This document shows, one piece after another, positions 29,847 through 32,742 of a stretch of DNA of 64,000 nucleotides. The DNA comes from a virus, in IMG/VR virus record IMGVR_UViG_3300021379_000005, positions 62,001 to 126,000 of that record; one strand, given 5' to 3'. The translations under genes were made by a program, and so were the position numbers. The notes under the pieces are model-generated. The model was not told the origin of the DNA, searched no databases, and saw nothing but the letters and a program-made list of their open reading frames with translations. The stretch's first letter is position 1, and every line of letters begins with the position of its first letter.

Positions 29847-30194
29847 TCAGAATGTAAAGCGAACACCAACTGATGTATCTTCATATTCAAAGTCATGATC
29901 TGCACTAATATCACTGTAAAGAGAAAGTGCAGGAGATACTGCATATGAAACTCCCAAATTAACACCGTCAAAATTAATTGTATCAGATGCTAAGTTACGG
30001 TCATATGAAAAATCTGCCCATGGGCGCAGCACCAATCCTTGTGGAAGTGCCATTGTGTATCCTAATTCAGATGTAAATTTTTCATTTTCCAAACTATATT
30101 CAACTTCACCATCTACATGGCCTCTAATGCCTTCTGCCATTGCAGATGTGCATAAAAAAACCGCCGAAGCGGCTCCAACTAAAAACTTTGTCAT
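29847..30194 (-). CDS. Secreted beta-barrel-like outer-membrane protein
   Basis: The 115-residue protein has a clear signal peptide (MTKFLVGAASAVFLCTSAMA, cut after AMA). The mature chain has alternating hydrophobic strands and ends in a classic C-terminal barrel motif (TSVGVRFTF). At about 95 mature residues it is too short for a full 8-strand barrel, so it may oligomerise or act as a surface-altering peptide. It sits between the tmRNA gene and the 82-residue gene. Phage-coded outer-membrane proteins can block superinfection, but that is only a possibility here. Confidence 0.75.
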   Translation of the reverse strand: MTKFLVGAASAVFLCTSAMAEGIRGHVDGEVEYSLENEKFTSELGYTMALPQGLVLRPWADFSYDRNLASDTINFDGVNLGVSYAVSPALSLYSDISADHDFEYEDTSVGVRFTF

Positions 30195-30219
30195 TTATTA
30201 AATCCTTTTACTATGACTG

Positions 30220-30600
30220 CGGGCCCGTTTGGTAACAAGGTGGAGCCCATACCCCGCTGATTATGCTGCTAGAGCAAATTCAGGTGCAAAGTTATCGTTT
30301 GCGTTTAGTTTTGTTCGACCGAATATCGTAGGTCAACACGGTAATCTACTCTCATCTCTACACACCTGTCGATCCTAGTTCGCCCCCATCATAAACACAC
30401 GAATAAGTAATGGCCCAAATCTATAACTTTTATAAGGATTCCCACTGTTAAATCTAAATTCGCCCCATTGAAAAGGTGTTCCTTTAAACCAACTAATCCA
30501 GTGCCAATCCCAATTCATTATATCCTCATGTGTTTATGGTGGAGGCGTTGGGTACTGCCCCCAAGTCCAGTATGCATGTTGAATCGTATCAACAATTACA
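30220..30600 (-). ncRNA. ssrA: Circularly permuted two-piece tmRNA (alphaproteobacterial type)
   Basis: Read on the minus strand, the acceptor piece comes first (from about 30600): a T-stem TTGGG/CCCAA with a seven-base loop, then CGCCTCC and encoded ACCA, ending at 30537. A 149-base spacer follows, then the coding piece, which starts at 30387 with GGGGGCG. This pairs with CGCCTCC to give a 7-bp acceptor stem with one G-U. The tag frame at 30261-30302 encodes ANDNFAPEFALAA then TAA. Sequence beyond both ends of the stem continues to pair (ATAAACACA with TGTGTTTAT), as in a precursor that is processed into two RNAs. The role is ribosome rescue and tagging for proteolysis. Exact mature 5' and 3' ends are estimates. 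Confidence 0.92.
30375..30518 (-). CDS. 47-residue Trp-rich protein encoded inside the tmRNA spacer
   Basis: An open frame fills the spacer between the two tmRNA pieces: MNWDWHWISWFKGTPFQWGE, then FRFNSGNPYKSYRFGPLLIR and VFMMGAN. A GAGG ribosome-binding site lies just upstream of the ATG at 30518. The last four codons, including the TAG, lie inside the coding piece, so RNA processing would remove the stop. The amino-acid make-up looks like a real protein, not chance, but I cannot test conservation. It may be the reason the spacer is long. Confidence 0.55.
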   Translation of the reverse strand: MNWDWHWISWFKGTPFQWGEFRFNSGNPYKSYRFGPLLIRVFMMGAN

Positions 30601-30604
30601 AGTT

Positions 30605-30635
30605 TATTTATACACTATTCTTTTATTTTTGTCAA
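30605..30635 (-). promoter_or_regulatory. Overlapping sigma70 and T4-late promoters for the tmRNA
   Basis: TTGACA (30630-30635) and TATAAA (30607-30612) have a 17-base spacer. The same -10 region reads TATAAATA (30605-30612), the T4 late consensus. The expected start is near 30600, at the 5' edge of the acceptor piece. The promoter lies within the 3' end of the upstream membrane-protein gene. Confidence 0.75.
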
Positions 30636-30812
30636 GCAAAAAATAATATAAAAAATATAGTGTAATAATACAACACCAAGAAATTCATACAATACGATAT
30701 TTTCTTCTGGTGTAAATACCATTAAACTTTTTCCAAATAAACCTAAAAGGAATAAAAGGATAAAGTAAGAAACTATGGGGATACACACAAAGTACCCCCA
30801 ACTTATTTTCAT
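30615..30812 (-). CDS. Two-helix membrane protein, candidate holin
   Basis: The 65-residue protein has two hydrophobic segments (YFVCIPIVSYFILLFLLGLF and VLYEFLGVVLLHYIFYIIFC) and a short charged tail. Its ATG overlaps the stop of the endolysin gene (30809-30812), so the two are coupled. A small membrane protein next to an endolysin is commonly a holin or antiholin; that is inference. The 3' end holds the tmRNA promoter. Confidence 0.68.
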   Translation of the reverse strand: MKISWGYFVCIPIVSYFILLFLLGLFGKSLMVFTPEENIVLYEFLGVVLLHYIFYIIFCLTKIKE

Positions 30813-31264
30813 ACCATCAGCTCAAAGTGTGGAGCGTCAATAAATGGGCGTCTTCCTTGAGAGCGCCTCAAATCAACATAGGCGTTCATGGCGTCTTCCA
30901 TGGAACCATCCCACTCTCTAATGTCATCAATGTGCCAGGCTGCGCCCCAGCGGACTGCTACACCTTCTTCTATTGCAGCGGCCTTCATTGCGTCTGCAAC
31001 TTCATCATACACATTGAGTTCCCAGACTCCACGGCCTCCAACATAAGCCATTAAGTCTACTGCAAGTCCGTCAAGATGCTTACTCTTCATTGTTTGACTT
31101 GCACCCTTAGCAACTAAAGCCTCTTGTTCTTCAAGAGTTCTTAAACCTTGGATCACTCCAAAGTCGACCTCAGTCAATTCGATAGCACGGCTGACAACTC
31201 TAACCATGTCATCATGAACACCTTCCAGTTTAGAAAGTGATCTGTTTGATAATTTAAAAGTCAT
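30809..31264 (-). CDS. M15-family peptidoglycan peptidase (endolysin)
   Basis: The 151-residue protein has the M15C (L-alanyl-D-glutamate / VanY-like) zinc peptidase motifs: a GLRTLEEQEAL segment, SKHLDGLAVD (zinc ligands His63 and Asp70) and a final DAPHFEL (His146). There is no signal peptide, so a holin is needed for release. It is the only free-standing endolysin-like gene near a membrane-protein partner in this window. Confidence 0.9.
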   Translation of the reverse strand: MTFKLSNRSLSKLEGVHDDMVRVVSRAIELTEVDFGVIQGLRTLEEQEALVAKGASQTMKSKHLDGLAVDLMAYVGGRGVWELNVYDEVADAMKAAAIEEGVAVRWGAAWHIDDIREWDGSMEDAMNAYVDLRRSQGRRPFIDAPHFELMV

Positions 31265-31944: not shown

Positions 31945-32742
31945 TCAAAAAAAACTATCAATCGTAATATCTGCCTTGTATCTTGCGATATTACTCTTAT
32001 TATGTTTTATGTCATTACTGTGAATGAATGGCATATCATCACACCATTCGTATTCTGTTTCGCCAGGCCGTTTAATTTTCCACTGCAAATCATCATCTTT
32101 TGGATACTGATTTGTCCAACAACAAGTTGAATATCTATTCATATACTTTCTATCTGTTTTTGTCAATGGATAGATATATCTGAACTGTTTACCCCATACT
32201 CTTGAAAACCCCATATCACCCATTTTGGCGTCATTTGGTCGAGGGCCATACTTCGTATCATGTCTACCCATCTCTTTCTTCATCTTCCTCTGTATAGTCC
32301 TAAAATGCACCTTCTCGCCTGTCTCAGAGACATATACATCAGACCATATAAAACCGCCGTAAAGAAAGTTTGCAGATTGGTAAACATATCCTGGCTTTCC
32401 AACTATTCCATCTGCCCAAGTATACAGATATTTTGCATCTGTATTTTCACGCATCCACTTTACCGTTTGAGATAACATTTGGGATTCGGAGTTTCTGGGC
32501 ATAGAATCATCCATGCACATCTTTCCGATCTCAAAGTAATCGGATGTAGTCAAATCTGGAAACATCTTTTTAATAGTTCCCATCGGATTAGTTCCCCATC
32601 CTAATGTTAAAACCCCAACCAACTTATCATCTAAGTGAAAACCTAGATAATGTTTAGTTAATCGAGGCATAACTGCAGAATAATGGCGTTCTGCAACAAA
32701 TACAGAAGCATTATTCTTGTGAAGGGGCCTTATATCATACAT
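31945..32742 (-). CDS. Mom-like DNA-modification acyltransferase homologue
   Basis: The 265-residue protein resembles the Mom family (GNAT-related enzymes that modify adenine in phage DNA): ERHYSAVMPRLTKHYLGFHL, LVGVLTLGWGTNP, YFEIGKMCMDDSMPRNSESQ, KYLYTWADGIVGKPGYVYQS and ANFLYGGF. Mom of phage Mu protects DNA from host restriction. The call is by motif pattern. It overlaps the peroxiredoxin gene by one base. A plain GNAT role cannot be excluded. Confidence 0.7.
   Translation of the reverse strand: MYDIRPLHKNNASVFVAERHYSAVMPRLTKHYLGFHLDDKLVGVLTLGWGTNPMGTIKKMFPDLTTSDYFEIGKMCMDDSMPRNSESQMLSQTVKWMRENTDAKYLYTWADGIVGKPGYVYQSANFLYGGFIWSDVYVSETGEKVHFRTIQRKMKKEMGRHDTKYGPRPNDAKMGDMGFSRVWGKQFRYIYPLTKTDRKYMNRYSTCCWTNQYPKDDDLQWKIKRPGETEYEWCDDMPFIHSNDIKHNKSNIARYKADITIDSFF

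What the first reader, a model, noticed from the sequence alone, without database searches (positions are those of the whole stretch)
30220..30635. Phage-encoded circularly permuted two-piece tmRNA
The minus strand holds an acceptor piece ending in encoded CCA, a 149-base spacer, and a coding piece with tag ANDNFAPEFALAA. The acceptor strands CGCCTCC and GGGGGCG pair, and pairing continues into the flanks. Two-piece tmRNAs are typical of alphaproteobacteria. A permuted tmRNA in a T4-like phage would give the phage its own ribosome rescue and points to the host group. The pieces, tag and pairing are read directly; the function is from family knowledge.
Basis: partly seen in the sequence, partly recalled or inferred. 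Interest (0 to 1): 0.9.

Follow-up and report, generated by a model that had tools for sequence, protein, structure and literature searches.

The report
Phage tmRNA carrying a swappable gene
A marine T4-like phage carries a two-piece ribosome-rescue RNA (tmRNA), as some phages are already known to do. The stretch cut out between the two pieces holds a tiny protein gene that is conserved and has been swapped in and out among related phages, which I found no report of.

Summary
The minus strand holds a complete alpha-type permuted tmRNA: acceptor piece, 149-nt spacer, coding piece, tag ANDNFAPEFALAA, with a G3·U70 pair, over both Rfam cut-offs. The T arm and a helix extending the acceptor stem covary across viral relatives. 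The headline is not new: isolated phage Melnitz carries one, and 53 of 133 distinct phage tmRNA structures were already counted as two-piece.

The unreported part is the spacer. It holds a 47-codon gene (30375-30518, minus) with a ribosome-binding site; its stop codon lies inside the mature coding piece. The gene evolves as protein-coding sequence (pN/pS 0.21) and recurs in 38 viral tmRNA contexts plus 4 free-standing copies. The spacer is 91-99% identical between tmRNAs whose flanks are about 50% identical. In syntenic relatives (88-94% identity) exactly this stretch is replaced by other sequence. About a dozen unrelated small ORFs fill spacers of other phages, including Melnitz, where the ORF is unannotated. 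Bacterial spacers from the same search are 4-82 nt (SAR11 11-16) with no such excess.

Best reading: a working phage tmRNA whose excised spacer is an exchangeable slot for small genes. Translation, protein function and the exchange mechanism are inferred.

The parts
30606..30635 (-). sigma-70-type promoter: TTGACA (30630-30635), 17 nt, TATAAA (30607-30612)
   Evidence: Read. In phage relatives TTGAYN-16-19-TATAN sits mostly 67-77 nt upstream of the CCA end in 100 of 184 distinct loci (2.2 expected from shuffles); bacteria 1 of 107. The generic scan did not list it because it demands T at the last base of the -10 box.
30537..30599 (-). acceptor piece of the two-piece tmRNA, ending in encoded CCA
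   Evidence: RF04321/RF01849 alignments, ARAGORN, T-stem covariation
30548..30564 (-). T arm TTGGG-GGCAGTA-CCCAA
   Evidence: covariation in relatives
30388..30536 (-). 149-nt spacer (intervening sequence), the exchangeable stretch
   Evidence: replaced in syntenic relatives between 30400 and 30528; 91-99% identical across otherwise diverged tmRNAs
30529..30536 (-). 5' arm of the helix that extends the acceptor stem (TAAACACA)
   Evidence: covariation; fold
30392..30399 (-). 3' arm of the same helix (TGTGTTTA)
   Evidence: covariation; fold
30523..30527 (-). ribosome-binding-site-like GAGGA, partly paired in the predicted precursor fold
30375..30518 (-). spacer gene F1, 47 codons: MNWDWHWISWFKGTPFQWGEFRFNSGNPYKSYRFGPLLIRVFMMGAN; stop TAG at 30375-30377 lies in the mature coding piece
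   Evidence: pN/pS 0.207 and variable columns by codon position 1/4/15 among 10 distinct 47-codon sequences; 42 viral loci
30218..30387 (-). coding (mRNA-like) piece of the tmRNA, from GGGGGCG at the presumed RNase P site
   Evidence: RF01849 match to 30218; coordinates
30261..30302 (-). tag reading frame ANDNFAPEFALAA and stop
30154..30179 (-). terminator-like hairpin with T run, inside the first codons of the next gene (29847-30194)
   Evidence: kept in relatives L407 and L418

Best explanation
The locus is a working alpha-type two-piece tmRNA gene of a T4-like phage, transcribed from its own promoter at the 5' end of the acceptor piece. Its spacer, which processing removes, holds a translated small gene (F1) in the loop of the extended acceptor stem. 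In this phage group the spacer is an exchangeable slot: the stretch between the two arms of the extension helix is swapped or inserted between tmRNA genes of diverged phages, bringing in unrelated small genes or non-coding filler while the tmRNA pieces stay intact. F1 is made from the precursor before, or instead of, its processing. Shown by sequence analysis: tmRNA anatomy, covariation, the fixed promoter motif, coding selection on F1, mobility of the spacer. Inferred: transcription and processing in vivo, translation of F1, recombination at the conserved arms as the mechanism, and the role of F1 (I presume a small phage accessory protein).
For: tmRNA. Coding: F1 pN/pS 0.207 with variable columns 1/4/15 by codon position; F9 0.12, F4 0.18, F2 0.29, F3 0.35. 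Excess: in the viral sample not chosen for ORFs, 10 of 34 distinct spacers of 100 nt or more hold a ribosome-site-led ORF that fills them, against 0.53 expected from shuffles; bacteria 2 of 21 (40 nt or more) against 1.0 expected. Length: viral 5-266 nt with one unverified 1428-nt parse, bacterial 4-82 nt with the same pattern, SAR11 11-16 nt. Mobility: F1 spacers 91-99% identical (mean 94.6%) where the 86 nt upstream average 49% and the 230 nt downstream 51%, and neighbouring proteins of carriers are about 25-62% identical to the window's apart from one at 82%. In L429, L407, L408, L418 and L437, colinear with the window at 88-94%, the only unaligned stretch at the tmRNA is 30401-30527, filled by three different spacers. 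L124 and L212 carry F1 inserted right after CCA in front of an older spacer. L157 carries two small ORFs in tandem in one spacer.
Against: No expression data. F1 has no PHROG or Pfam match and a low-confidence model (pLDDT 56), so its role is unknown. Four F1 copies lie outside tmRNAs, so F1 does not need the tmRNA. Many viral spacers hold no ORF. Nearly all relatives are metagenomic contigs; only Melnitz is an isolate, and its ORF is of another family.
Confidence: 0.78

Rival explanations
1. The spacer gene and the tmRNA regulate each other. RNase P cleavage at 30387/30388 cuts the F1 frame inside a codon and removes its stop, leaving a non-stop mRNA whose product would be tagged by tmRNA, as for E. 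coli ArfA (family knowledge). Full F1 would accumulate only from unprocessed precursor, and ribosomes on the ORF would open the acceptor stem and block maturation.
For: F1, F3, F6, F7 and F10 end at +13 and F2 at +42, inside the mature coding piece. The predicted precursor fold pairs AUAAACACAUGAGG, with part of the ribosome site, with the 3' end of the ORF.
Against: Families F4, F5, F8, F9, F11 and F12 stop before the cleavage site (-15 to -7), and the L124/L212 copies of F1 stop in the spacer. Reading frames into the coding piece are mixed, so a shared non-stop design is not required. Free-standing F1 copies exist.
Confidence: 0.2
2. The spacer ORF is accidental; the spacer is neutral filler that happens to be open.
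For: Many viral spacers have no ORF; the protein matches no known family.
Against: Codon-position pattern 1/4/15 and pN/pS 0.21 for F1, low ratios in four other families, 10 observed against 0.53 expected filling ORFs.
Confidence: 0.05
3. The phage tmRNA is a decoy that blocks host trans-translation rather than a working tmRNA.
For: No phage SmpB found. A tag-less phage DS6A tmRNA inhibits endogenous tmRNA when expressed in E. coli (PMC11915505).
Against: Here the tag frame ending ALAA, G3·U70, the T arm and the acceptor stem are intact and covary in relatives.
Confidence: 0.1
4. The shared spacers reflect strong sequence constraint and common descent, not movement.
For: The protein is conserved under purifying selection.
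Against: Synonymous difference among F1 copies is only 0.14 while the flanks average about 50% identity. Close syntenic relatives carry unrelated spacers. Inserted and tandem states exist.
Confidence: 0.04

Closest known systems
Two-piece ssrA of Methylophilales phage Melnitz (PMC9004378; MZ577095-98)
   Same: T4-like marine phage, alpha-type permuted tmRNA, own early promoter proposed; its spacer also holds an ORF right after CCA (54 aa, MFKWLSKTRLVV..).
   Different: The ORF is of another family, runs to +42 in another frame and is not annotated. The paper describes a glutamine riboswitch at the ssrA 3' domain; no riboswitch passed the Rfam cut-off here.
Alphaproteobacterial two-piece tmRNA (RF01849), e.g. 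SAR11 and Caulobacter
   Same: Anatomy, tag type, G3·U70, Rfam match.
   Different: Bacterial spacers from the same pattern are 4-82 nt, SAR11 11-16 nt. The few long ones looked at (L512-L515) show no ribosome-site-led ORF. The fixed -35/-10 placement is absent.
tmRNA with other inserts: group I intron tmRNA, and one permuted tmRNA with a tRNA-Ala gene in its intervening sequence (PMC11915505)
   Same: Extra genetic cargo inside a tmRNA gene.
   Different: The introns self-splice and sit in the T loop, some with homing endonuclease genes. Here the cargo lies in the natural spacer, needs no splicing, and is unrelated small proteins.
E. coli ArfA (non-stop-regulated rescue factor; from family knowledge)
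   Same: For F1, processing would remove the stop codon.
   Different: No Pfam match; not all spacer ORFs share this layout.

Membership tests
Permuted two-piece tmRNA, alpha type (RF01849 / RF04321) | Score over the curated covariance-model cut-off | tested here: met
   114.6 bits (cut-off 50) and 123.2 bits (cut-off 47), full model length
Permuted two-piece tmRNA, alpha type (RF01849 / RF04321) | Acceptor stem between the two pieces with G3·U70; encoded CCA | tested here: met
   Sequence; pair 67-6 covaries in relatives
Permuted two-piece tmRNA, alpha type (RF01849 / RF04321) | Tag frame with resume codon GCA and hydrophobic ALAA end | tested here: met
   ANDNFAPEFALAA
Permuted two-piece tmRNA, alpha type (RF01849 / RF04321) | Stems kept by compensatory change in relatives | tested here: met
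   T stem and extension helix
Permuted two-piece tmRNA, alpha type (RF01849 / RF04321) | SmpB partner | tested here: inconclusive
   None found in the phage record, which may be incomplete; presumably host-supplied
Permuted two-piece tmRNA, alpha type (RF01849 / RF04321) | Precursor cut into two RNAs and charged with alanine in the cell | not testable with these tools
   Needs RNA from infected cells
Self-splicing intron or homing element | Ribozyme in the insert | tested here: not met
   No Rfam intron or ribozyme in the window or in 17 loci with other spacers
Self-splicing intron or homing element | Insert encodes a homing endonuclease | tested here: not met
   F1 has no Pfam match; an HNH gene lies next to an F1 copy only in L204
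ArfA-like rescue factor | Sequence match to a known family | tested here: not met
   No Pfam match for F1
ArfA-like rescue factor | mRNA made non-stop by RNA cleavage | tested here: inconclusive
   The layout predicts it for F1 (stop at 30375-30377, cut at 30387/30388); cleavage not observed

The most novel reading that the evidence does not exclude
In marine phages the tmRNA spacer is a gene-capture slot where tmRNA maturation and translation of the captured gene exclude each other on the same transcript, so the phage couples ribosome-rescue supply to expression of an interchangeable set of small proteins.
Probability: 0.2. Interest if true: 0.9.

Novelty: new variant of a known kind. Interest (0 to 1): 0.7.

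Why it matters
Two-piece tmRNAs have a spacer that is thrown away. Finding conserved, exchangeable protein genes there shows that phages use it as a place for cargo, in a transcript that must also fold and be cut into a working RNA. It gives a natural system for the competition between translation and RNA processing, adds about a dozen uncharacterised phage protein families that tmRNA annotation hides, and can be tested in an isolated phage (Melnitz). It also explains why phage tmRNA genes have long and variable spacers.

Tried and rejected
Non-ORF spacers as structured or known RNAs: no Rfam match in 17 loci and no excess folding energy (median z -0.5). F1 in cultured phages: no match; F8 and F9 none either; two-ORF spacer L157 none. 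An exact empty site for the L124 insertion: none found, though syntenic relatives with other spacers served instead. Function from families: no PHROG or Pfam match. Structure: AlphaFold pLDDT 56, not usable. T4 capsid family PF07068 gave no hit, but the control genomes rang nowhere, so this says nothing. Phage SmpB: none. First-pass coding-piece finder lost some diverged tmRNAs (19 viral loci with room), so the spacer counts are lower bounds. Literature: terms for tmRNA with ORFs in the intervening sequence gave nothing relevant, but only open-licence papers are held.

Full report
OBSERVATION. The minus strand at 30218-30599 is a permuted tmRNA. Rfam RF04321 matches 30599-30261 with 123.2 bits and RF01849 matches 30654-30218 with 114.6 bits; ARAGORN gives the tag ANDNFAPEFALAA. 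Acceptor piece 30537-30599, encoded CCA, spacer 30388-30536 (149 nt), coding piece from 30387, tag 30261-30302. CGCCTCC and GGGGGCG pair with G3·U70. The window is part of a 128,880-base virus record; baseplate, baseplate hub/lysozyme and single-strand DNA-binding protein matches support a T4-like phage.

THE HEADLINE IS KNOWN. Melnitz, an isolated T4-like phage of OM43, carries a two-piece, alpha-type ssrA. That paper counted 133 unique phage tmRNA structures, of which 53 were two-piece and 50 of those marine or aquatic (PMC9004378). Host inference from tmRNA type is weak for the same reason: Melnitz does not infect an alphaproteobacterium.

THE SPACER IS A GENE. An ORF starts 18 nt after CCA behind GAGGA and ends at a TAG inside the coding piece (30375-30518): MNWDWHWISWFKGTPFQWGEFRFNSGNPYKSYRFGPLLIRVFMMGAN (here F1). 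Among 10 distinct 47-codon sequences pN/pS is 0.207, and the variable columns fall 1, 4 and 15 on codon positions 1, 2 and 3. So it evolves as a protein.

IT IS A GENERAL FEATURE OF PHAGE tmRNAs. One T-arm pattern was scanned in viral contigs and in bacterial genomes. Viral spacers run 5-266 nt, apart from one unverified parse of 1428 nt; bacterial ones 4-82 nt, SAR11 11-16 nt. In the viral sample, which was not chosen for ORFs, 10 of 34 distinct spacers of 100 nt or more hold an ORF led by a ribosome site that fills the spacer, against 0.53 expected from shuffles. Viral spacers of 40-99 nt (1 of 30 against 1.4) and bacterial spacers (2 of 21 against 1.0) show no excess. A second scan, chosen for such ORFs, gave many more. 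The proteins fall into about a dozen unrelated families of 28-78 aa, several membrane-like by eye; the ten tested match no PHROG. Families F2, F3, F4 and F9 also have low pN/pS (0.12-0.35). Melnitz itself has one, unannotated in GenBank. A sample of 190 genomes of the class of a SAR11 genome gave mostly short matches; of the longest, four were read and show no ribosome-site-led spacer ORF.

THE SPACER MOVES. F1 spacers are 91-99% identical (mean 94.6% over 190 pairs) between loci whose 86 nt upstream average 49% and whose 230 nt downstream average 51% identity. Neighbouring proteins shared between carriers and the window are mostly 25-62% identical, with one at 82%. Conversely L429, L407, L408, L418 and L437 are colinear with the window at 88-94% overall, and at the tmRNA the alignment breaks only between 30400 and 30528: three other spacers of 73, 103 and 92 nt sit there. 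These breakpoints are the two arms of the extension helix. L124 and L212 carry F1 inserted directly after CCA with an older spacer still behind it; L157 has two small ORFs in tandem, related to those of L017 and L037. L204 holds acceptor piece plus F1, then an HNH gene, then an intact tmRNA without the ORF.

F1 OUTSIDE tmRNA. Of 42 F1 loci, 38 follow a tmRNA acceptor piece; L469, L481, L482 and L490 do not. L469 and L482 end in GTGTGTTTCTGAGGGGGTCGAAC, which resembles the tmRNA coding-piece start, and L490 keeps the TAAACACATGAGGATATA leader, so these look like escapes from tmRNAs (inference). F1 therefore does not depend on the tmRNA for its existence.

ANATOMY OF THE TRANSCRIPT. An 8-bp helix after CCA covaries in viral loci: 87% paired, 30-57% when slid, 0 of 1000 re-pairings. 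The ORF lies in its loop. The predicted fold of the window precursor extends this helix over part of the ribosome site (z -2.46). A TTGAYN/TATAN promoter sits mostly 67-77 nt upstream of CCA in 100 of 184 phage loci (2.2 expected) and in 1 of 107 bacterial ones, so transcription probably starts at the 5' end of the acceptor piece. A terminator-like hairpin follows at 30154-30179.

MECHANISM. Most likely the tmRNA works with host SmpB, AlaRS, RNase P and RNases, and the spacer is an exchangeable slot whose gene is translated from the precursor. For F1, cutting at 30387/30388 would remove the stop codon; whether this matters (a non-stop feedback like ArfA) is open, because half the families stop before the cut. 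Recombination between the conserved arms and acceptor sequences could explain the swaps; homing endonucleases may help in cases such as L204. None of this is shown.

LIMITS. No expression data; nearly all relatives are metagenomic contigs; F1 has no known relatives and no usable structure model. The literature held is open-licence only.

Noticed in passing
window 30154-30194 (-): A terminator-like hairpin with seven T lies inside the signal-peptide-like start of the next gene (MTKFLVGAASAVFLCTSAMA), and is kept in L407 and L418.
   Followed up: partly
window 31945-32742 (-): Protein matches the Mom family (Pfam PF25680, E 3.3e-48), DNA modification.
   Followed up: no
window 30809-31264 (-): Peptidase M15-like protein just upstream of the tmRNA, possibly an endolysin.
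   Followed up: no
L204:1091-2138: Acceptor piece plus F1, an HNH gene on the other strand, then an intact tmRNA without the ORF; the same contig carries TRAP transporter genes DctQ and DctM.
   Followed up: partly
L481 around 690-1647: Two F1-like copies outside any tmRNA, on both sides of a thyX-like gene.
   Followed up: partly
L062:3108-3284: A manA RNA (RF01745, 60.8 bits) directly after the tmRNA, comparable to the glutamine riboswitch reported for Melnitz.
   Followed up: no
L016, L023, L054, L077 spacers: Non-ORF spacers recur as families and several hold T-arm-like GGGTTCRARTCCC motifs; no Rfam match, not unusually stable.
   Followed up: partly
L003:2510-3200: Sinorhizobium phage Phosso has what looks like an unannotated tmRNA with a spacer of several hundred bases holding another tmRNA-like part.
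   Followed up: no
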